From Microbacteriaceae bacterium (GTDB lineage: Bacteria > Actinomycetota > Actinomycetes > Actinomycetales > Microbacteriaceae): a DNA stretch of 10,386 nt. The notes beneath the pieces are model-generated. The model worked only from the letters and a program-made list of their open reading frames with translations, had not been told where the DNA came from and ran no database searches. The stretch lies in contig JAODAU010000452.1 of the NCBI GenBank assembly GCA_025463615.1, forward strand, positions 1-10,386, in the 5' to 3' direction. Shown here in pieces: positions 1,679 through 10,386 of this stretch. The stretch's first letter is position 1. Every line of letters starts with the position of its first letter. The position numbers and the translations under genes were made by a program.

Positions 1679-2839
1679 ATGACCCGTCCCACTGTCCTGG
1701 CCTACTACTTCCCGGGATGGCACCCAGACGAACGACTCTCGGAGCGCTACGGCGAGGGTTGGACGGAGTGGGACCTCCTGAGGGCCGCCCGCCCGCGCTT
1801 CCCCGGTCACCGCCAGCCGAGGGTGCCCGCGGACGGATACCTGGACGAGTCGGACCCCGCGGTGATGGCGGGCAAGGTCGACCTGGCCGCCGACCACGGC
1901 GTCGACGCCTTCCTCTTCGACTTCTACTGGCACGATGACGGCCCGTTCCTCGAGGGCGCGCTCTACCGCGGCTACCTCGAGGCGCCGAACAGGGACCGGA
2001 TCGGGTTCGCGCTGATGTGGGCGAACCACGACTGGGTGGAGATCTTCCCCGCCGACCACGACGAGCACGCGGTGATCACGCCGGGCGCGGTGGGCAGACC
2101 CGCCTTCGACGCCATGGTCGACCACGTGATCGAGCACTATTTCTCCCAGCCGGAGTACCTGACGGTCGACGGCAAGCCGTTCTTCTCGATCTACGAGATC
2201 GGGTCGCTCATCGAGGGGCTCGGCGGGGTCGAGGAGGCACGCGCCGCCCTCGAGGACTTCCACCGCAAGACCGTGGCCGCCGGGCATCCGGGACTGTACC
2301 TGGATGCCACGGTCTGGGGTTTCGGCGTGCTCCCCGGCGCCGTCACGACCGCGGAGCCCGAGGAGCTGATCCGCACCCTCGGCTTCGCCTCCGCGAGCTC
2401 GTACGTATGGGTGCATCACAGCGACGTCTCCGCCAAGTCGTTCCCGGTCGTGGAGTGGGACGCGGTGGCGGATGACGCGTTCGACGCGTACGCGCGCTAT
2501 GCGACCGAGCTCGGCGTGCCGTTCATCCCGAACGTCACCGTCGGGTGGGACTCGAGCCCGCGCACCGACCAGGGGCTGCCGTTCCAGCCGGTCGGATACC
2601 CCTGGTATCCCGTGATGGACGCCTCGCCGGCCCAGTTCGAGCGCGGGTTGAGACGCGCCGTCGAACTCCTCGACGGGCACGACCTGGCGCACCCGATGCT
2701 CACCATCAACGCCTGGAACGAGTGGACCGAGGGTTCCGCACTCGAACCGGACACCGAGCACGGCACGGGCTACCTCGATGCGCTGCGAACCGTGCTCGGC
2801 ACCGCATCCGAGGCGGCGCGGAACGAGGATGTCGCCTGA
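1679..2839 (+). CDS. GH99-like / WbsX-family protein
   Basis: This 386-residue protein has the Glyco_tran_WbsX fold, annotated as 'glycoside hydrolase family 99-like'. It opens with a strand ending YYFPGWHPDE (residues 9-18), then GWTEW (27-31), a typical F-x-G-H-x-Q-P segment (41-47), D-F-Y-W (81-84) and M-W-A-N-H-D-W (113-119). Near the C-terminus is N-A-W-N-E-W-T-E-G (344-352) followed by L-E-P-D (355-358). True GH99 endo-alpha-mannosidases carry two catalytic glutamates three residues apart in an EWHEG-type motif; here E348 and E351 keep that spacing but the histidine is threonine. No signal peptide is visible, so it is probably cytoplasmic. WbsX homologues are often tied to polysaccharide synthesis, but the position behind two sugar permeases argues for catabolism. 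The exact reaction is unknown. Its last 70 nt overlap the convergent beta-propeller gene. Confidence 0.85.
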   Translation: MTRPTVLAYYFPGWHPDERLSERYGEGWTEWDLLRAARPRFPGHRQPRVPADGYLDESDPAVMAGKVDLAADHGVDAFLFDFYWHDDGPFLEGALYRGYLEAPNRDRIGFALMWANHDWVEIFPADHDEHAVITPGAVGRPAFDAMVDHVIEHYFSQPEYLTVDGKPFFSIYEIGSLIEGLGGVEEARAALEDFHRKTVAAGHPGLYLDATVWGFGVLPGAVTTAEPEELIRTLGFASASSYVWVHHSDVSAKSFPVVEWDAVADDAFDAYARYATELGVPFIPNVTVGWDSSPRTDQGLPFQPVGYPWYPVMDASPAQFERGLRRAVELLDGHDLAHPMLTINAWNEWTEGSALEPDTEHGTGYLDALRTVLGTASEAARNEDVA

Positions 2840-3780
2840 CGCTGGCCGTCGAGTTCGAGCCGGGTCTCGCGCCCTCCGATCACCCACTCCGTGAGGTACA
2901 CGGTGCCGTCGTCGCGCACCGCGATGCCGTGCGGGCTGTTCAGGATGCCGTCGACCAGCGCGGGGCGCCGGGCCGCGCCGCCGTCCCGCTCGTCGTTCGG
3001 CCAGCCCGGCCGGGAGTGGGTCGCCGGGTCGATGGGGATGATGGCCGTGACGCGATCCGCCGGATCGACCGCGAGGAGGGCGCCGAACAGGTCGGTGACG
3101 AGCAGCTCGGCGCCGCGCACGGCGATCGAGCTGGGGCTCGTCATGACCGGGTCCTCCAGCGCGCGCACGAACGACCCGTCGAGGTCGAACCACACGAGCC
3201 GACGGTTGCCGCGATCCGCGACGACGATGATCGGCTCACCGCCCCGCGTGTCCACCGCCACGCCGTGCGGGCAGTCGAAGGCTGCGCCCGATTCCGAGCC
3301 ATCGATGGTCAGCGACGAGCCATCCGGGCGCACCAGGTGCACCAGGCTCTCGCCGTACCCGTCCGCGATCCAGAGGTCGCCCCGATGCGGGCCGGCGGTG
3401 ACGATCGCCAACGATGTCGGCGCCCAGCGCTCCGATTCGCCTGCGGGAATACCCGGCCGGCGGATGCGCCGGGTGCTCCGGGTCGCGACATCGAGCGCGA
3501 GCACCTGGCCGCCGGGATCCGCGATCCAGAGCGTGCCGGGGTCGATCGACGGCTCCGAGAGGATGCCGTGGCACTCGGCGGTCGGCGTCGCGATCCGCTC
3601 GACCGCGCCGGTCGCCTCGTCGATGAGCGCCACCCCGCCCCCGCCGCGCTGGGCCACCACGAGTCGGCCGTCGGCGGCGATCGCGGCACCGGAGTGCGAC
3701 CAGGCGTCGGGTCGATCGTCGAGGTCGTGCCGCAGCGTCGTCCACCGGGTGCGGCGGCCCGAATCAGTGGTCAGTTCCAC
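2770..3780 (-). CDS. NHL/SMP-30-like beta-propeller protein, coupled to the P450
   Basis: This 336-residue protein looks like a six-bladed beta-propeller of the NHL/SMP-30 kind. Repeating blade signatures include LWIAD at 84-88 and 136-140, HGVAVD at 172-177, an NHL-like ADRGNRRLVWFD at 188-199, LLVTD at 226-230, and HGIAVRDDGTVYLTEW at 284-299. Histidines 71, 172 and 284, each followed by glycine, recur at equivalent blade positions, as in metal-binding propeller lactonases and amidating lyases. No signal peptide is seen. The chosen start is GTG at 3780, which overlaps the P450 stop by 10 nt; a longer open frame runs on to 3939, but its added residues are Arg/Ala-rich shadow sequence of the P450 gene. 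The last 22 residues lie in the overlap with the GH99-like gene and look like a non-conserved tail. It could be a lactonase/hydrolase acting on the P450 product, or only a binding or scaffold protein. Confidence 0.8.
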   Translation of the reverse strand: MELTTDSGRRTRWTTLRHDLDDRPDAWSHSGAAIAADGRLVVAQRGGGGVALIDEATGAVERIATPTAECHGILSEPSIDPGTLWIADPGGQVLALDVATRSTRRIRRPGIPAGESERWAPTSLAIVTAGPHRGDLWIADGYGESLVHLVRPDGSSLTIDGSESGAAFDCPHGVAVDTRGGEPIIVVADRGNRRLVWFDLDGSFVRALEDPVMTSPSSIAVRGAELLVTDLFGALLAVDPADRVTAIIPIDPATHSRPGWPNDERDGGAARRPALVDGILNSPHGIAVRDDGTVYLTEWVIGGRETRLELDGQRQATSSFRAASDAVPSTVRSASR

Positions 3781-4958
3781 GCGACCATCACCGCCCCGGC
3801 CTCGTAGGTGGCCACGGGGTTCGCGAACGGCAGGGGCTCGAGCTGGTCGGCGTGCATGAGCCTGAGGTCGGGCGCCGCGGCGATCAGCTGCCCGATCCCT
3901 TCGCGGATCTCGAGGCGCGCGAGCTGCTGGCCCACGCATCCGTGCGGTCCGTGGCCGAAGCCGAGGTGGCCGAACGCGTCACGCGTGATGTCGAACTCGT
4001 CGGGCTGCTCGTACTGGCGCTCGTCGTGGTTGGCGGCGACCGGTGAGACCGCGACCGTCGTGCCCGCGGGGATCGCCGTTTCGTCCAGCTCGACATCCTC
4101 GGTGGCGGTGCGGGGGAACAGTGTCACGAACATCGCGCCGACCCGCATGAACTCCTCGACCGCGGTCGTCATATGCTCCGGCCCGTCGCGCAGGATCGCG
4201 AGCTGGTCGGGATGGGTGAGCAGCGCCGTCATGGCGGTGGAGATGAGGTATGCCACGGAGTCGCGGCCCGAGGTCATCAGCACGAACAGGACGCCCTCGA
4301 CCTCGGACCGCGTCCATTCGCCGGCGAGCAGGTGAGTGGCGACATCCTCGCCCGGGTCGTGCTCCCTGGCGTCGAGCACCCGCCGCACGAAGTCGAACTG
4401 CTGCTGCAGGGTCGTCTGTTCCGTGACGAAGAGCGTGGCGAACTCGGGATGCAGCTCCGTCGGCACACCGAGCACGAGGCAGTGGGTGCGGGCAGAGATG
4501 GGTGTCGCGTAGTGCTCGAAGAGGTCCGCGGGCTCGGCGCGGGCGAGGAACTCCTCCAGCTGGGACCGGACGATCTCGCGCACCGCCTCCTCGCGGGCGC
4601 GCACCGCGCGCACCGAGAACTGCGAAAGCACGGCCCGCCGCATCCGAAGGTGCTGATCGCCGTCCAGCGACAACAGGTTCGCGACCTCGAGGGAGGCCTT
4701 CGCGGCCGCGTCGAGAGGGCTCGGCTCGCTCTCGGGCATGGGGTGGGGCAACCGCGACACGGTGAGCGTGAACCGGGGGTCGGCGAGCACGTCGCGTGCG
4801 AGGGCGTGCCGGGTGACGATGAGGCCCTCGTGCCCGTCAGGGTAATGGAGCGGGGTGGCCGGCGCCTCGTCGCGCCACACGGCGAGCGTCGGGGATGGCG
4901 CGAGCGGCGTGCCATCGGTGGGCAGGGTGCGATCGCCGTGGAAGGGGCAGCCGGTCAT
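3771..4958 (-). CDS. Cytochrome P450 (class I, ferredoxin-dependent)
   Basis: This is a soluble bacterial P450 of 395 residues, the usual length, with no membrane anchor. The heme loop is F-G-H-G-P-H-G-C-V-G at 334-343, making Cys341 the thiolate ligand. The K-helix E-x-x-R is E269-R272, followed by PRTA at 282-285 and a P-D-E-F-D-I-x-R meander at 319-326. The C-helix heme-propionate region is H103-L-R-M-R-R. The I-helix oxygen-activation motif is S-G-R-D-S at 230-234, so the acid (D233) is kept but the usual threonine is serine (S234). The start overlaps the reductase stop by ATGA and has GAGAGG about 8 nt upstream. The gene is third in a ferredoxin-reductase-P450-propeller operon, so its redox partners are supplied together with it. 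The substrate is not deducible; the sugar-gene context raises hydroxylation or O-demethylation of a carbohydrate as a possibility. Confidence 0.97.
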   Translation of the reverse strand: MTGCPFHGDRTLPTDGTPLAPSPTLAVWRDEAPATPLHYPDGHEGLIVTRHALARDVLADPRFTLTVSRLPHPMPESEPSPLDAAAKASLEVANLLSLDGDQHLRMRRAVLSQFSVRAVRAREEAVREIVRSQLEEFLARAEPADLFEHYATPISARTHCLVLGVPTELHPEFATLFVTEQTTLQQQFDFVRRVLDAREHDPGEDVATHLLAGEWTRSEVEGVLFVLMTSGRDSVAYLISTAMTALLTHPDQLAILRDGPEHMTTAVEEFMRVGAMFVTLFPRTATEDVELDETAIPAGTTVAVSPVAANHDERQYEQPDEFDITRDAFGHLGFGHGPHGCVGQQLARLEIREGIGQLIAAAPDLRLMHADQLEPLPFANPVATYEAGAVMVAWN

Positions 4959-6085
4959 GCGAGGGTCCTCTCGGGTGGGGTGCTCGCGGAGCGAGCGATG
5001 CGGAATTCGCGCGGCATGTTCCAGCCGACGAGTCCCTCGGTCCGTCCCTCTCGCCGCGCCGCGATCACGAAGCGATCGCCGTCGGCGTCGCCCGCGACGG
5101 TCTCGAGTTCGGCATCGGGGCCGATGCGACCGTGCACAAGGATGCGCGTGCCGAACAGGGTGGTCCAGAAGAACGGCGTGATCGCGTCGGACGCGGCGCC
5201 GGTGACGAGCCGCCTGGCCACCGCCTGCGCCTGCTCGATAGCGTTCTGCTGGTGCTCGACGCGCGTCGGCGCGCCGGTGGAGGCATCCACCCAGGCGGCC
5301 ACGTCACCGACGGCGTGGATGTTGTCGCCCGCGCGCCCGCTCTCGTCGCAGACGACGCCGTCGGAGAGGTCGAGGCCCGAGCCGCTCAGCCATTCGACGG
5401 CGGGCTTGCATCCGATCGCCGCGACGACGACGTCGGCCGGAACCCGGATGCCGGAATCGAGCGTCACTCCGGCAGCGTCGGCCGACGCCACGACAGCGCA
5501 CGTCTGCACCCGTACGCCGTTCGCCGAGAGCAGCGCGGCGATGCGGCCGGACATCCGCGTGCCCAGCGCCCCGAGGCTCAGGCTGTCGCGCCGGGCGAGC
5601 AGCGTCACCTCGAGGTCGGCGGACCGCGCCGCGGATGCCAGCTCGCACGCGAGGATGCCCGCGCCGATGATCGCGACCCGCTCCGCCCCGGCGAAGGCGC
5701 CGCGCAGCTCGAGCGCATCGTCGATGGTGCGCAGGCTGCGCACGCCCGCGAGCGCGGGCCGGCGGGCGGTCGCACCGGTGGCGATCACGAGTTCGTCGTA
5801 GTGAAGGGTGGTCGCGCTCAAGTGGACTTCGCGGCGCGCACGGTCGAGGGCCGTCGCTTTCGCGCCGAGAAGCAGTTCGATGTCGAGCCTCGCGAGCTCG
5901 GCGTCATCCCGGATCCGCGCGTCATCGCGCTCGCCCGCCAGCACCTGCTTGGAGAGCATCGGCCGGCTGTACGGCACGTGCGATTCGCCGCCCACGAGCG
6001 TGATGCGCCCGGTGAATCCCTCGTCGCGCAGCGCCTCGGCGGTGGTGAGGCCGGCGAGGGAGGCCCCGACGATCGCGACGTGCAC
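4955..6085 (-). CDS. FAD-dependent NAD(P)H:ferredoxin reductase
   Basis: This 376-residue flavoprotein is of the rubredoxin/putidaredoxin-reductase type and passes electrons from NAD(P)H to the ferredoxin encoded just upstream. The N-terminal dinucleotide fold has V-G-A-S-L-A-G-L (6-13) for FAD, then PYSRPMLSK (38-46) and ATGA (102-105). A second Rossmann motif G-A-G-I-L-A-C-E-L-A (141-150) binds NAD(P)H; its third glycine position is alanine (A146). The FAD-closing motif A-V-G-D is at 258-261 and R-V-E-H-x-x-N-A at 275-282. The C-terminal reductase domain contains TPFFW at 303-307. The start is GTG at 6085, chosen because the beta-strand begins at once and GGAG sits 7 nt ahead; a longer frame up to 6202 adds only Arg/Ser/Pro-rich sequence overlapping the ferredoxin gene. 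It lies 4 nt after the ferredoxin stop and shares ATGA with the P450. Cytoplasmic. Confidence 0.95.
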   Translation of the reverse strand: MHVAIVGASLAGLTTAEALRDEGFTGRITLVGGESHVPYSRPMLSKQVLAGERDDARIRDDAELARLDIELLLGAKATALDRARREVHLSATTLHYDELVIATGATARRPALAGVRSLRTIDDALELRGAFAGAERVAIIGAGILACELASAARSADLEVTLLARRDSLSLGALGTRMSGRIAALLSANGVRVQTCAVVASADAAGVTLDSGIRVPADVVVAAIGCKPAVEWLSGSGLDLSDGVVCDESGRAGDNIHAVGDVAAWVDASTGAPTRVEHQQNAIEQAQAVARRLVTGAASDAITPFFWTTLFGTRILVHGRIGPDAELETVAGDADGDRFVIAARREGRTEGLVGWNMPREFRIARSASTPPERTLA

Positions 6086-6089
6086 GGCG

Positions 6090-6281
6090 CTACTCCGAGA
6101 GGCGGATGGCGCGCGCCGGGCAGAGCGAGGCCGCGCGGCGGGCGAGCGGCCGTTCGGCCTCGGACGGATCGGGCTCCAGCACCATGACGATCCCGTCGTC
6201 ATCCTGGTCGAACAGCTCGCCGGCGGCGAGAACGCACTGCCCTGCCCCGACGCAGGCCGACGTATCGGCGATGATGTGCAC
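6090..6281 (-). CDS. Small [3Fe-4S]-type ferredoxin for the P450
   Basis: This is a 63-residue one-cluster ferredoxin, the electron carrier between the reductase and the P450. The ligand pattern is C10-V-G-A-G-Q-C16 followed by C54-P55, that is C-x5-C-x37-C-P, with Ala13 where a [4Fe-4S] ferredoxin would have its second cysteine. Three cysteines with a replaced second ligand are typical of the ferredoxins that serve actinobacterial P450s. An acidic stretch (D25-D29) follows the first two ligands. The start is taken as GTG at 6281 because family members begin immediately before the first beta-strand and GAGGAG lies 4 nt upstream; GTG at 6293 or TTG at 6305 would add four to eight residues. It is the first gene of the operon and reads away from the divergent AraC gene. 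Other P450-like redox enzymes could share it. Confidence 0.93.
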   Translation of the reverse strand: MHIIADTSACVGAGQCVLAAGELFDQDDDGIVMVLEPDPSEAERPLARRAASLCPARAIRLSE

Positions 6282-6347: not shown

Positions 6348-7268
6348 GTGTCCATGTCGCCCGATGTTGAACCCGTGCCGAGGATCGGCGTGCGCGAGCG
6401 GCTCGCCGTGCTGCAGGATTTCGGCATCGCGGCGGAGGAGTTCCACGGCTACACCAGCCCCGTGCTGCAGCTGCACGGCATCGACGTCGTGCTGCTCACC
6501 TTCGTGCTGCGGGGCACGGGACGGCACGTGCTGGATGACACGGAGCACGGGATCCTCGGGCCGTCGTTCGCCGTGACCCGCACGGGTGAACGGCACGGCC
6601 TCATCACCGACGGCGACGAACTGGACGTGGTGAACGTCTACCTCGACCTCGACGCTCGACCCATCGAGCCGCTGGGCTCCGAGCTGGATCCCGCACTCGC
6701 CACCCTCTTCCCGGTGGGTGCCTCGCCCCGGGTGCGGCTGCCGCAGGTGACGCTCGACGACGTGCCCGCCGTCCGTGCCGTGCTGGACCTGCTCGTGCGC
6801 GAGACGCGGTCGCCGGCTTTGGGAACGGGCGAGGCGCTCGTCGCCCTGCGCCGCGTGCTGCTCATCGAGTGCGCGCGGGCGCTCGCCGCACACGGCTTCC
6901 TGCCGGGACGACGCGCGGCGAACCGGGCGGATGTCGCGGTGGACACGGTGCGCGCCCACCTGGACCGCACGTTCACGGAGCGCCAGACGCTCGCCGAACT
7001 CGGCGTGCTCGCCCACCTCGAACGCACCTACCTCTCCCGCGCCTTCGCCGCCCGCATGGGCGAGACGATCTCGGACTACCTCACTCGACTGCGTGTGGGG
7101 TACGCCATGTCACAGCTGCGATCGACCGACCTCGGCATCGCCGAGGTCGCAGGCGCGGCCGGATTCCGCGACCTCTCCCACTTCGGGCGAACCTTCCGGC
7201 GAACCACCGGAGTGTCACCCCGCGAGTACCGTCGCGGGGCTCAGGGCCAGTCGTCCAGCTCGAGGTGA
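6348..7268 (+). CDS. AraC-family transcriptional regulator
   Basis: This is a 306-residue regulator of the AraC/XylS family. Residues about 20-130 form a cupin-like effector-binding region (for example HGIDVVLLTFVLRGTGRHVL at 43-62). The C-terminal DNA-binding domain has two helix-turn-helix units: TLAELGVLAHLERTYLSRAF at 214-233, and the classic IAEVAGAAGFRDLSHFGRTF at 264-283 followed by F-R-R-T-T-G-V-S-P-R-E-Y-R. The start is taken as GTG at 6348, which has AGGGG 6 nt upstream; ATG at 6354, two codons in, is an equally possible start. It is divergent from the ferredoxin operon across 66 bp and so is its likely regulator, typically an activator responding to the pathway substrate. The last 28 nt overlap the convergent GH95 gene. 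The effector is unknown; a sugar would be common for the family. Confidence 0.93.
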   Translation: MSMSPDVEPVPRIGVRERLAVLQDFGIAAEEFHGYTSPVLQLHGIDVVLLTFVLRGTGRHVLDDTEHGILGPSFAVTRTGERHGLITDGDELDVVNVYLDLDARPIEPLGSELDPALATLFPVGASPRVRLPQVTLDDVPAVRAVLDLLVRETRSPALGTGEALVALRRVLLIECARALAAHGFLPGRRAANRADVAVDTVRAHLDRTFTERQTLAELGVLAHLERTYLSRAFAARMGETISDYLTRLRVGYAMSQLRSTDLGIAEVAGAAGFRDLSHFGRTFRRTTGVSPREYRRGAQGQSSSSR

Positions 7269-9625
7269 CCGCCGGTCTCCAGCTGAACGGTGACCCGACG
7301 ATCGCCCCACCGCACCGTGACCTCGCCCGACCCGGCGTGGCGGTCGAGCGCGACGCGGGTCGGCCGGCCGGCATCCCACTCGATCGCGACCTCGATGCCG
7401 CCGCGGGCCCGCAGCCCGCGAACCGAACCTCCGGCCCAGCCCGGCGGCAGGGCCGGGAGCACATGGATGGCGTCGCCGTGGCTCTGCAGCAGCAGCTCGG
7501 CGACGGCGGCGGGGAAGCCGAGGCTGATGTCCACCTGGAAGGGGGAGTGCGCGCGCAGCAGCGTGGGCACGAGCCCGCCCCAGGCCCAGTGTTCGGCGCC
7601 TTTCAGGTCCGGGTCGCCCGGGCGCTCGAGTGTCGCGTGCATCACGCGCTCGGCCGCCGCGCCGTCGCCAAGGCGCGCGCGCAGCGCGATCGACCACGCC
7701 CACGGCCAACCCTCCGACGGATGCGTGCGCCCCGACACGAAGGCGCCCGCGGCGGCGGCGAGCCCCGGCTGGCGGTCCACATCGATTCGCCCGAGCGGGT
7801 AGAGGCCCACCAGTGCGGAGAAGTGCCCGTGCGCAGGGTTGGGGTCGGCCCGGTCGACGTGCCACTCGCGGATGCGGCCGTCGGCGCCAACGGCATCCGG
7901 CTCGATGCGCACCAGGGCCGCCTTCGCCCGGTCGACGATGTCGTCGTCGAGCCCGAGCACGGCGGCCGCGTCGACCGTGTCCTCCAGCACCTGCGAGATC
8001 AGCGCGCGGTCTATCGCCGTGCCCCGATCCAGGGCCGCGGCCGCGTCGCCGTGCACGAAGTGGTTCTCGGGCGACGTCGACGGGTTGGTGAGGAGCCAGC
8101 GTCCGCCGTCATCCTGCAGCCAGTCCAGGGCGAACGCCGCCGCGCCGCGCAGCACGGGCCACGCGCGCTCGCCGAGCCACCCGGCGTCGAGGCCGAAGCG
8201 GTAGTGCTCCATGAGGTGGGTCGTGAGCCAAGTGCCGCCGGTCATCCAGATGGCCCACGCCGGGTCGCCGTGGCCCATGCCGACGGGCAGCGGCCAGCCC
8301 CACAGGTCGGTGTTGTGATGCCCCACCCAGCCGTCGGCGTCGTAGAGCTCGCGGGCCGCGACCGCGCCGGTCCGCTCCATGACCTCGAGCAGGTGCACGA
8401 GCGGCTCCACCGTCGCGCCCAGCCCCGTGGACTCGGCGCCCCAATAGTGCATCTGCACGTTGATGTTCGTGGTGTAGTTCGACGACCACGCCGGCCGGAT
8501 GTCGTCGTTCCACAGCCCCTGCAGGTTCACCGCCGGGCCGCCCGGGCGGGAGGCCGCGACCAGCAGGTAGCGCCCGTACTGGAACAGGGCCGGCGCGACC
8601 ACGGCGTCGGTCGGATCGGCCGGCAGGCGATCGACCACCATCTCCTCGGGCGTGCCGTCCAGCAGCAGAGCGGCCGAGGCGAGCAGCGGGCGCACGTCGT
8701 CGACGTGGCGCTCGAGCGCGGCATCCTGTGCCAGGGCGGCGCGTGCACGAGAGCGCGCGCGGTCGACGTGGGCGGATGCCGCGCCGATCGGCTCCCGCCC
8801 CGCGAACCAGTCCTCCGCACCCGTCGACGACGAGATCGCGACCCGCACGAAGCGCGCCCCGCGCACCTCGACGCGGCCGCCCCGAATGACGACCTCGCCG
8901 TCAGTGTCCAGCGCGGCACACGCCGCGGCGAACGGCTCCCACTCCTCGGTCGCACGATCGGCGGGATGCCCCGGCCGCACCGCATCGCCGCGCCAGCGCA
9001 TCGCGTGCTCCTGCGGTTCGTGCAGCGGAGCGCCATCCACGGGCACCTCGATCGCGATCGCCAGTCCGTCCGGGGATTCCGAGACACCGAGGTCGCGAAG
9101 CCGCGTCGTGAGCTCGAGTTCCACGTCGAAGGCCCCGCGCGCCGCGCGGAACTCGGCGAAGATCGCCTCGTCGGGGCGGCTCGCCCAGGTGCGGCGGGTG
9201 AGCTCGACCTCGCTGTTGTCCACGTCATCCCGGTACACGGCGTCCTCGAGGTCGAGGGTCCTGCCGACGAAGGTGGGCGCGTCCCCGCCCAGCCGGAACC
9301 GGGCGCGCAGGTCGACGTAGGGAAGGAATTCCTGGCTGTAGGTGCCCTCGAACGGCATCAGCAGGGCCTCGGCGTCATCCGGCCGCCCATCACGGATCGC
9401 CGCGCGCACCTCGGCGAGGGCCGCGGGCCCGGCCCCGTTTCGCAGGAGCGCGTCGAGCTCGTCGCGCCACGCGGTCGGGGTGCCCGACCACACGGTGCCG
9501 TCGTTGACCTGGAGGTGGAACGACTCCACGCCGCCGAGGATCATCGCCCCGAGGCGTCCGTTGCCGACCGGCACGCCCTCGATCCAGCGGCTCGGCGGGC
9601 CCTCCCAGCGCAGTCTGCGGGTCAT
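7241..9625 (-). CDS. Glycoside hydrolase family 95 (alpha-L-fucosidase/alpha-L-galactosidase-like)
   Basis: This 794-residue inverting exo-glycosidase should release alpha-linked L-fucose or L-galactose. The N-terminal beta-domain begins W-I-E-G-V-P-V-G-N-G-R-L-G-A-M (14-28) and has N-D-G-T-V-W-S-G (41-48), both GH95 hallmarks. The (alpha/alpha)6 barrel contains N-L-Q-G-L-W-N (367-373), N-Y-T-T-N-I-N (383-389) with the conserved Asn pair N387/N389, T-S-P-E-N (517-521) with the probable general acid E520, G-H-F-S-A-L-V-G-L-Y-P (600-610), E-G-W-P-W-A-W (638-644), and P-F-Q-V-D (695-699) with the conserved Asp699. After this Asp the usual G-N-F-G reads I-S-L-G, a departure that may affect specificity. 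No signal peptide is seen, so it likely acts in the cytoplasm on imported oligosaccharides. The start overlaps the esterase stop by ATGA, with GAGAGG 8 nt upstream. Its end overlaps the AraC gene by 28 nt. Confidence 0.93.
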   Translation of the reverse strand: MTRRLRWEGPPSRWIEGVPVGNGRLGAMILGGVESFHLQVNDGTVWSGTPTAWRDELDALLRNGAGPAALAEVRAAIRDGRPDDAEALLMPFEGTYSQEFLPYVDLRARFRLGGDAPTFVGRTLDLEDAVYRDDVDNSEVELTRRTWASRPDEAIFAEFRAARGAFDVELELTTRLRDLGVSESPDGLAIAIEVPVDGAPLHEPQEHAMRWRGDAVRPGHPADRATEEWEPFAAACAALDTDGEVVIRGGRVEVRGARFVRVAISSSTGAEDWFAGREPIGAASAHVDRARSRARAALAQDAALERHVDDVRPLLASAALLLDGTPEEMVVDRLPADPTDAVVAPALFQYGRYLLVAASRPGGPAVNLQGLWNDDIRPAWSSNYTTNINVQMHYWGAESTGLGATVEPLVHLLEVMERTGAVAARELYDADGWVGHHNTDLWGWPLPVGMGHGDPAWAIWMTGGTWLTTHLMEHYRFGLDAGWLGERAWPVLRGAAAFALDWLQDDGGRWLLTNPSTSPENHFVHGDAAAALDRGTAIDRALISQVLEDTVDAAAVLGLDDDIVDRAKAALVRIEPDAVGADGRIREWHVDRADPNPAHGHFSALVGLYPLGRIDVDRQPGLAAAAGAFVSGRTHPSEGWPWAWSIALRARLGDGAAAERVMHATLERPGDPDLKGAEHWAWGGLVPTLLRAHSPFQVDISLGFPAAVAELLLQSHGDAIHVLPALPPGWAGGSVRGLRARGGIEVAIEWDAGRPTRVALDRHAGSGEVTVRWGDRRVTVQLETGGHLELDDWP

Positions 9626-10386
9626 GTGTCGTGCCTCTCAGTCATGCCGAACGTGTCTCGGAGCGCTGCCAGCCCCCCGCGGAGGTCGGCGGTCCCCCCG
9701 GATTCGTGGCCCGCGCCCGGCCACTCGCGGTAGACGACGGGAGCGGCGTACGCGGATGCCGCGGCCGCAGCCGTCTCGGGCGGGCAGATGTCATCGTCGA
9801 GCCCCGCGGTGATCCAGCCGGGTGCCGTCGCATGCCGCGCCGACGTGACGCCATCGACGTAGGCGAGGGTGCGAGCGACCGCGTCGACGCGCTCCGGGTG
9901 CTCGGAGAGATAGCGCCGCAGCTCGAGCCACGGCCCGGCGCTCGCCCGGCGCAGGGCCCCGGGTGCGTCCGTGAGGAAGGGGGACTGGGCGAGCACAGCC
10001 ACCAAATCGGGCACAAGTGCACCGACGCCCAGGGCGATTCCGCCCCCCTGACTGTTGCCGATCACCGCCACGCGGGAGGGGTCGACCTCATCGAGCGTGC
10101 GCACCGCCTCGACCGCCCGGGCGCCGTCGACGAGCACTCCGCGGTAGTAGTAGCGCTCCGCGTCGGTGATGCCGTCGAGCAGGTGGCCGGCGCTGCCGCC
10201 GCCCTGCTGCCACGTGCCGAGGGTGAGGTGCGCGAACCCGGCGGCCGACCAGGTGAGGTCGTCGATGGGGTCGAGTCGCCCCGCGCCGTAGCCGTTGGCG
10301 TGCACGACGACGGGGAGCGCGCCGCCACGGTGGCGCGGCATCCGCAGCCACGCCGAGACCCGCCGGCCGCCCGCGCCGGTGAACGT
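9622..10386 (-). CDS. Acetyl xylan esterase / cephalosporin-C deacetylase family (CE7, AXE1), 5' partial
   Basis: This alpha/beta-hydrolase should remove acetyl groups from oligosaccharides. The frame is open to the window edge, giving 254 visible residues against about 320 for the family, so some 65-70 N-terminal residues are outside. An ATG at 10341 is internal: the 15 residues before it continue the family pattern (T-F-T-G-A-G-G-R-R-V-S-A-W-L). Fragment numbering: V-V-V-H-A-N-G-Y-G (26-34) forms the oxyanion region, then Y-Y-Y-R-G (79-83), the nucleophile elbow G-N-S-Q-G-G with Ser112, D-D-D-I-C-P-P (197-203) with the probable catalytic Asp198, and G-A-G-H-E (224-228) with His227. The classic R-G-x-x-x-D-G segment is present at 82-88. 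The stop overlaps the GH95 start by ATGA, so deacetylation and exo-hydrolysis are co-expressed. CE7 enzymes are usually cytoplasmic and accept short acetylated sugars. Whether this copy has a signal peptide cannot be seen. Confidence 0.92.
   Translation of the reverse strand, partial: TFTGAGGRRVSAWLRMPRHRGGALPVVVHANGYGAGRLDPIDDLTWSAAGFAHLTLGTWQQGGGSAGHLLDGITDAERYYYRGVLVDGARAVEAVRTLDEVDPSRVAVIGNSQGGGIALGVGALVPDLVAVLAQSPFLTDAPGALRRASAGPWLELRRYLSEHPERVDAVARTLAYVDGVTSARHATAPGWITAGLDDDICPPETAAAAASAYAAPVVYREWPGAGHESGGTADLRGGLAALRDTFGMTERHDT
9634..9639 (-). promoter_or_regulatory. Ribosome binding site of the GH95 gene
   Basis: GAGAGG on the minus strand, inside the end of the esterase gene, is 8 nt before the ATG at 9625. 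It confirms a coupled start rather than a separate promoter. Confidence 0.5.

What the first reader, a model, noticed from the sequence alone, without database searches (positions are those of the whole stretch)
3771..6281. Complete P450/ferredoxin/reductase trio embedded in a glycan-utilisation neighbourhood: candidate carbohydrate O-demethylase or oxidase
Seen directly: one operon encodes all three parts of a class I P450 system, with sugar permeases and a GH99-like gene on one side and GH95 and CE7 genes on the other. Known: in marine Bacteroidetes (Zobellia, Formosa) a P450 with its ferredoxin and ferredoxin reductase demethylates 6-O-methyl-D-galactose inside an agarose/porphyran locus. 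Also known: some GH95 enzymes act on L-galactose or L-fucose in pectin (RG-II), a polymer that also carries 2-O-methyl-fucose, 2-O-methyl-xylose and acetyl groups. Inference: this could be an actinobacterial version that oxidises or demethylates a methylated sugar during breakdown of a decorated glycan. Proximity is the only link; a separate terpenoid or aromatic pathway is a real alternative.
Basis: partly seen in the sequence, partly recalled or inferred. Interest (0 to 1): 0.7.

Follow-up and report, generated by a model that had tools for sequence, protein, structure and literature searches.

The report
P450 system tied to rhamnose use
A relative of Microbacterium carries a complete oxygen-using P450 enzyme system whose close relatives sit again and again beside genes for using the plant sugar rhamnose, so it probably oxidises a decorated (perhaps methylated) sugar, a job known for a P450 in seaweed-degrading marine bacteria.

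Summary
The trio is real: P450 (3771-4958), ferredoxin reductase (4955-6085) and three-cysteine ferredoxin (6090-6281) form one minus-strand operon; an NHL propeller gene (2770-3780) probably belongs too. The GH95/CE7 neighbours do not recur (0 of 37 related loci), but the sugar link holds and sharpens. In 24 genomes carrying a relative (49-76% identical), the P450 lies within 10 kb of L-rhamnose isomerase, mutarotase or GH78 rhamnosidase in 18 of 24 (0.42 expected). Other P450s of those genomes: 0 of 27 within 20 kb, against 19 of 24. Of 13 further loci, 10 hold a GH78 or GH78-like gene. Nine of 37 run ferredoxin-reductase-P450-sugar transporter-rhamnosidase; ten have a RhaS-type importer. 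Best reading: a CYP105/107-like P450 used in rhamnose-type sugar catabolism, most likely O-demethylating a methyl-L-rhamnose or similar sugar. Oxidation of a rhamnoside's aglycone is a live rival. Against demethylation: the two formaldehyde-dehydrogenase families tested are absent near the P450 and missing from most carriers. The window itself holds no rhamnose gene, and one divergent relative sits in a linalool-type cluster. Substrate and reaction are not shown. New variant of a known kind.

The parts
6090..6281 (-). ferredoxin, three-cysteine (CxxAxxC...C, 3Fe-4S-type) single-cluster
   Evidence: PF13459/PF13370; motif CVGAGQC in all 32 ferredoxins found: the window's and those of 31 of 37 relatives' loci
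4955..6085 (-). FAD/NAD(P)H ferredoxin reductase (Pyr_redox_2; TodA/BphA4/putidaredoxin-reductase-like)
3771..4958 (-). cytochrome P450, class I, CYP105/107-like; haem loop GFGHGPHGCVG, I-helix SGRDS
   Evidence: PF00067; model pLDDT 92.6; PDB relatives
2770..3780 (-). NHL beta-propeller protein, probable fourth gene of the operon (GTG start overlaps the P450 end by 10 bp)
   Evidence: PF01436; relatives in 5 of 24 loci, 0 of 13 further loci; model pLDDT 92.1
6348..7268 (+). AraC-type regulator, divergent from the P450 operon
   Evidence: PF12833; its cluster also lies beside the cassette in L036, L037, L050
1..795 (+). sugar ABC permease, 5' end outside window
   Evidence: PF00528; 54% identical copy in L047
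792..1643 (+). sugar ABC permease
   Evidence: PF00528; 56% identical copy in L047
1679..2839 (+). GH99-like 'WbsX' protein; no signal peptide by a crude hydropathy check
   Evidence: PF14307; 53% identical copy in the P450 locus L047
7241..9625 (-). GH95 alpha-L-fucosidase/L-galactosidase-type enzyme; no signal peptide by a crude hydropathy check
   Evidence: PF22124; PDB 2rdy, 4ufc; not found near relatives
9622..10386 (-). CE7/AXE1 acetyl esterase, 5' end outside window
   Evidence: PF05448

Best explanation
A complete class I P450 system (reductase to ferredoxin to P450) used in carbohydrate catabolism. A sugar ABC transporter brings in a small rhamnose-type sugar or rhamnoside, cytoplasmic glycosidases open it, and the P450 oxidises a decoration that blocks further use: most likely an O-methyl ether on L-rhamnose (for example 3-O-methyl-L-rhamnose) or a similar 6-deoxy sugar, giving the free sugar and formaldehyde. 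The sugar then enters the RhaM/RhaI/RhaB/RhaD route. Shown: gene make-up, operon layout, conserved linkage to rhamnose genes in relatives, conserved active-site motifs. Inferred: that the sugar itself is the substrate, that the reaction is demethylation, which methyl sugar, and that the window's copy keeps the relatives' function (the 10.4-kb window holds no rhamnose gene).
For: 18 of 24 carriers have the P450 within 10 kb of RhaI, RhaM or GH78 (expected 0.42), 19 of 24 within 20 kb (0.73), 21 of 24 within 50 kb (1.62). Control: 0 of 27 other P450s of the same genomes within 20 kb. 10 of 13 further loci hold GH78 or GH78-like genes. The one-strand run ferredoxin-reductase-P450-binding protein-permease-permease-GH78 occurs in 9 of 37 (L027, L033, L073-L078, L082); in L081 a GH78 gene ends 2 bp before the P450. 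In ten loci the partner is a RhaS-type importer (one representative scanned, over the TIGR02637 cut-off), with LacI, an aldo-keto reductase, a creatininase-family protein, and RhaM within 11 kb; 8 of these ten have no GH78 within 20 kb, which points to a monosaccharide-level substrate. In L037 a sugar-binding-protein gene directly precedes the ferredoxin. The GH78s checked show no evident signal peptide (crude). The window's permeases, WbsX and NHL recur with the P450 and RhaI/B/D/M in L047. Motifs xGxD(S/T)xAY and MFxTxFxRT are kept in the window and 35 of 37 relatives (not L035, L047). Precedent: P450 plus ferredoxin plus reductase demethylates 6-O-methyl-D-galactose (PMC10033563, passages). 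The nearest solved P450, StvP2, works on an O-methyl group (PMC7481197, passages). Terminal 3-O-methyl-rhamnose occurs in bryophyte and fern arabinogalactan-proteins (PMC6918356, PMC12209756, passages).
Against: No rhamnose gene lies in the window. TIGR03451 is in 0 of 24 carriers at E<=1e-100 and TIGR02819 over cut-off in 6 of 24, none near the P450; the RuMP route and the 13 further genomes' detoxification genes were not tested. 8 of 37 loci show no rhamnose gene within about 20 kb (L031, L032, L035, L037, L038, L080, L083, L084; L084 is cut by a contig end). Six loci, two of them GH78-linked (L079, L081), have no ferredoxin nearby. L035 sits in a linalool-dehydratase/CoA cluster. L047, the locus that ties the window's own neighbours to rhamnose, departs from the family motifs (AH, SLF). 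The closest relatives with context (L036, L050) have apiose- and tetritol-type genes nearer than the rhamnose genes. RhaI is common in the genus (276 of 361), so mere co-occurrence means little. 3-O-methyl-rhamnose is reported absent from angiosperm arabinogalactan-proteins.
Confidence: 0.45

Rival explanations
1. The P450 acts on the aglycone: rhamnosides of plant terpenoids or phenolics are imported, rhamnosidase releases the sugar for growth, and the P450 hydroxylates the freed aglycone to detoxify it or start its degradation.
For: GH78 is in the P450's own gene run in 9 of 37 loci and directly upstream in L081. The nearest solved P450s act on bulky natural products and drugs. L035 pairs ferredoxin, P450 and NHL with linalool dehydratase, alcohol and aldehyde dehydrogenases, CoA-transferase and thiolase.
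Against: Apart from L035, no aromatic or terpenoid catabolic set was recognised among the neighbours scanned (not every gene was scanned). Ten loci couple the P450 to a rhamnose-monosaccharide importer, 8 of the ten without GH78 within 20 kb. L035 is the relative whose I-helix (DN, AR) and K-loop (PFVGLF) motifs depart most, which suggests a shifted substrate.
Confidence: 0.25
2. The P450 oxidises a sugar but not a methyl ether: it hydroxylates a ring or branch carbon of an unusual sugar (apiose- or rhamnose-type), perhaps giving a hemiacetal or lactone that the NHL propeller or the AKR/creatininase pair then processes.
For: In L050 the gene converging on the P450 is ApnL-like (215.6 bits, well under its cut-off of 750), with a GH140-like gene and a Dak/TIM/RpiB set nearby. 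The NHL family has 35 invariant columns over 38 sequences, including H71, D88, D140, Y142, H172, H284 and E298, as expected of an enzyme. No formaldehyde gene of the two families tested is linked.
Against: NHL is in only 5 of 37 loci and the ApnL-like gene was seen only in the L036/L050 pair. I know of no P450 that hydroxylates a free sugar ring (recalled).
Confidence: 0.15
3. Separate pathway: a terpenoid or xenobiotic P450 that happens to sit among sugar genes.
For: CYP105-type P450s are often promiscuous (recalled). L031, L032, L035, L038, L080 and L083 show no rhamnose link within about 20 kb.
Against: 19 of 24 against 0 of 27 other P450s within 20 kb; the linkage recurs with different gene orders on several branches of the P450 tree.
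Confidence: 0.08

Closest known systems
6-O-methyl-D-galactose demethylase system of marine Flavobacteriia
   Same: All three parts of a class I system in one locus among sugar-degrading genes; proposed removal of a methyl ether from a sugar.
   Different: Host phylum and linked sugar (rhamnose in relatives, instead of galactose/porphyran). The P450 resembles actinobacterial CYP105/107 enzymes. The zinc alcohol dehydrogenase gene that marks the marine locus (PMC10033563) is not in the window. Kinship with CYP236 could not be tested; reaction unproven.
StvP2 (PDB 6m4p, streptovaricin methylenedioxy-bridge P450)
   Same: Best solved match (35-36% identity, Foldseek E 4e-26); works on a substrate's O-methyl group (PMC7481197, passages).
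   Different: Antibiotic biosynthesis; product is a bridge, not a free hydroxyl plus formaldehyde; its I-helix and K-loop stretches differ.
CYP105 / CYP107 P450s (MoxA, CYP105A1, CYP105N1, PikC)
   Different: 27-34% identity in the rows shown; solved complexes hold steroids, macrolides and drugs.
Actinobacterial L-rhamnose/rhamnoside utilisation clusters (GH78, RhaI, RhaB, RhaD-ADH, RhaM, RhaS-type importer)
   Same: Most relatives of the window P450 are beside or inside these.
   Different: No P450 member turned up in the paper searches made; the window stretch itself lacks rhamnose genes.
PAL, the NHL-propeller lyase of peptide amidation (PDB 3fvz)

Membership tests
Class I bacterial P450 system | P450 with haem-cysteine loop and I-helix acid-alcohol pair | tested here: met
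   GFGHGPHGCVG and SGRDS in the window
Class I bacterial P450 system | FAD reductase and Fe-S ferredoxin in the same operon | tested here: met
CYP236A sugar demethylases | sequence or structural kinship with the marine enzyme | tested here: inconclusive
   The lists shown (60 of 463 sequence hits, 50 of 1666 fold hits, 50 VIA rows) settle nothing about CYP236; no CYP236 sequence was available to compare
CYP236A sugar demethylases | releases formaldehyde from a methyl sugar | not testable with these tools
   needs enzyme assay
CYP236A sugar demethylases | locus among glycan-use genes | tested here: met
   window; rhamnose genes in 29 of 37 relatives' loci
CYP105 or CYP107 family | at least about 40% identity to members (nomenclature rule recalled) | tested here: inconclusive
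   27-34% to the solved members shown; members without structures not compared
L-rhamnose utilisation cluster | rhamnose-specific genes beside the P450 | tested here: inconclusive
   In 29 of 37 relatives; none inside the 10.4-kb window, whose surroundings are not held
PAL-type lyase (NHL protein) | NHL propeller with the lyase's metal-binding histidines | tested here: inconclusive

The most novel reading that the evidence does not exclude
An actinobacterial family of sugar O-demethylases, evolved from CYP105/107-like stock separately from the marine Flavobacteriia enzymes, that opens methylated L-rhamnose (such as the 3-O-methyl-rhamnose caps of moss and fern arabinogalactan-proteins) to the ordinary rhamnose pathway. 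In some lineages it may work with a PAL-like NHL propeller that resolves the oxidised intermediate, a two-step logic like that of peptide amidation.
Probability: 0.35. Interest if true: 0.78.

Novelty: new variant of a known kind. Interest (0 to 1): 0.62.

Why it matters
P450s are rarely tied to primary sugar metabolism (recalled); the one case met in the paper searches made here is methyl-galactose removal in seaweed-degrading bacteria. An actinobacterial counterpart linked to rhamnose would show that oxidative unblocking of methylated sugars also happens outside the sea and arose from a different P450 stock, and would give enzymes for sugars such as acofriose (3-O-methyl-rhamnose) whose methyl ether a glycosidase cannot remove. 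The hypothesis is directly testable with one purified trio.

Tried and rejected
Whole-genome context of the window: none held. Genome-wide co-occurrence of P450 and RhaI: uninformative, since 276 of 361 genomes of the genus have RhaI; distance was used instead. GH95/CE7 linkage: nothing similar in the fetched stretches of 37 relatives. Formaldehyde genes: TIGR03451 0 of 24 at E<=1e-100 (weaker matches not listed); TIGR02819 matches at E<=1e-50 in 10 of 24 genomes, over cut-off in 6, all far from the P450 or on other contigs; this counts against demethylation. CYP236 is not named among the sequence and fold rows shown, which excludes nothing. WbsX: no solved relative at E<=0.01. NHL fold: designed Pizza propellers, streptogramin B lyase, PknD, PAL, TRIM and DFPase all match, so no assignment. 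Extra flanks of G485, G503 and G083 (L054-L059) were only gene-called, four genes of G503 excepted (no sugar enzyme). Papers: methyl rhamnose plus P450 plus demethyl, 0; WbsX searches, 0; L-rhamnose plus P450 plus Microbacterium plus rhamnosidase, 0; some searches gave little (passages of PMC8371827 seen mention P450s and polysaccharide methyl groups only as a possibility). PAL structure paper not held. My gene caller is a heuristic that missed some genes (for instance the P450 of L038 and several ferredoxins) and calls some spurious small ones (one opposite-strand ORF each inside the runs of L075 and L076, ignored); tblastn filled in. The expectation treats genomes as independent, which they are not. 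In the control, 13 of the 27 other P450s lie on contigs without any marker and were counted as not near, as was the family P450 of G368; the nearest other P450 is 24 kb away (G485).
Full report
Observation. The trio is at the stated place. On the minus strand the order is ferredoxin 6281-6090, reductase 6085-4955, P450 4958-3771, with a 4-bp gap and a 4-bp overlap; then an NHL propeller 3780-2770 that overlaps the P450 by 10 bp. A divergent AraC gene starts 66 bp from the ferredoxin. Permeases and a GH99-like (PF14307) gene lie on one side, GH95 and CE7 on the other, as stated. The ferredoxin has the three-cysteine motif CVGAGQC...C, as do the 31 others found (31 of 37 related loci; L031, L032, L079, L080, L081 and L083 have none nearby). 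The P450 has the haem loop and the I-helix acid-alcohol pair.

Family. One search lists relatives from 98% (then 90, 84, 80%) down; the names given, where any, are mostly Microbacteriaceae genera. At E<=1e-100 a relative is present in 10 of 398 genomes of the family of G001, 15 of 366 of its genus, 6 of 66 of the genus of G380 and 9 of 347 of the order. After removing repeats this gives 24 plus 13 = 37 P450 loci (identity 49-76% and 48-61%). All 37 were fetched at up to 20 kb, some cut by contig ends.

Neighbourhood. Gene calling and clustering with Pfam and NCBIfam scans of chosen representatives show L-rhamnose genes as the recurrent neighbours: L-rhamnose isomerase (TIGR02635), rhamnulokinase-like, RhaD-ADH (TIGR02632), mutarotase (PF05336), RhaS-type importer (TIGR02637), GH78 rhamnosidases and LacI regulators. 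Mapping RhaI, GH78 and RhaM over the 24 carrier genomes puts the P450 within 10 kb of one of them in 18 of 24 (0.42 expected for random positions), within 20 kb in 19 of 24 (0.73), within 50 kb in 21 of 24 (1.62). The other P450 genes of the same genomes (27 at E<=1e-10) are within 20 kb in 0 of 27 (Fisher p about 9e-10, ignoring relatedness; 13 of the 27 lie on contigs without a marker, the nearest other one is 24 kb away). In the 13 further loci, 10 hold a GH78 or GH78-like gene: 8 by similarity to the scanned GH78 clusters and L079 and L081 by Pfam (L079 weak at 77.9 bits). In all, 29 of 37.

Layouts. Nine loci have ferredoxin, reductase, P450, binding protein, two permeases and GH78 in a row on one strand (L027, L033, L073-L078, L082). 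In L081 a GH78 gene ends 2 bp before the P450. Ten loci (L039-L046, L048, L049) have a RhaS-type importer, LacI, an aldo-keto reductase and a creatininase-family protein, with RhaM within 11 kb in all ten; 8 of the ten have no GH78 within 20 kb. L037 has a sugar-binding-protein gene directly before the ferredoxin. L047 has the P450, NHL, WbsX and both permeases (50-56% identical to the window's) together with RhaI, RhaD, RhaB and RhaM, and so ties the window's own neighbours to rhamnose. In a crude hydropathy check the GH78s show no signal peptide, while one of three binding proteins checked (L033) has a lipoprotein-type signal (the other two starts look truncated): import first, then hydrolysis inside the cell is the likely order.

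Exceptions. Eight of 37 loci show no rhamnose gene within about 20 kb: L031, L032, L035, L037, L038, L080, L083 and L084 (the last is cut by a contig end after a transporter of the GH78-operon type; L031's genome has GH78 at 22 kb and RhaI at 34 kb). L035 is in a set with linalool dehydratase/isomerase, alcohol and aldehyde dehydrogenases, CoA-transferase, enoyl-CoA hydratase and thiolase. The motifs xGxD(S/T)xAY and MFxTxFxRT are kept in 35 of 37 relatives and the window; L035 departs strongly (DN, AR, PFVGLF) and L047 mildly (AH, SLF). L036 and L050, the closest relatives with context, have a GH42, a GH140-like gene, an ApnL-like protein well under its model's cut-off, and a Dak/TIM/RpiB set nearest the P450, with GH78 at 9.4 kb and the rhamnose cluster at about 40 kb.

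Mechanism. Committed reading: transporter-fed, cytoplasmic oxidation of a rhamnose-type sugar, most likely demethylation. Natural candidates exist: terminal 3-O-methyl-rhamnose in moss, liverwort, hornwort and fern arabinogalactan-proteins, though not in those of angiosperms (PMC6918356, PMC12209756, passages). The precedent is the marine methyl-galactose system (PMC10033563, passages). The coupling to a monosaccharide importer and mutarotase in ten loci argues for the sugar rather than an aglycone. The lack of linked or universal formaldehyde dehydrogenases of the two families tested argues against demethylation and keeps the rivals alive.

Limits. No substrate was tested. The window has no rhamnose gene in its 10.4 kb, so function is carried over from relatives at 48-76% identity. 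CYP236 was not compared directly. Related genomes are not independent samples.

Noticed in passing
L035:3587-18638: A divergent relative of the ferredoxin-P450-NHL cassette lies in a linalool dehydratase/isomerase, ADH, ALDH, CoA-transferase, ECH and thiolase cluster: a possible actinobacterial monoterpene pathway with a repurposed P450.
   Followed up: partly
L039-L046, L048, L049 (e.g. L040:6644-8364): An aldo-keto reductase plus creatininase-family pair sits between the P450 and the RhaS-type rhamnose importer in ten loci; its role in sugar use is unclear.
   Followed up: no
L050:340-9333 and L052:7114-11508: Near the P450 in the closest genome: ApnL-like protein, Dak kinase, TIM, RpiB and SDR; about 16-20 kb away, GH127, an OiaX-like RuBisCO-like protein and an OiaK-like kinase. 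The three apionate-pathway names (ApnL, OiaX, OiaK) are below their models' cut-offs. Looks like apiose- or tetritol-type catabolism.
   Followed up: partly
L047:10946-12767: Split transketolase (287 and 322 aa) in the same strand run as the WbsX, NHL and permease genes, in the locus with rhaI/B/D/M and the P450.
   Followed up: no
window:2770-2839: The convergent WbsX and NHL genes overlap by 70 bp at their 3' ends.
   Followed up: no
window:2770-3780: NHL family with three invariant histidines (H71, H172, H284) in the 38 sequences aligned; a possible lyase or lactonase partner of a monooxygenase.
   Followed up: partly
window:1679-2839: GH99-like WbsX family is large (3458 hits at E<=0.001 among 7997 candidates scored) yet has no solved relative at E<=0.01.
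   Followed up: no
L081:2232-5342: DUF5722 protein in the same strand run as a GH78 gene and the P450.
   Followed up: no
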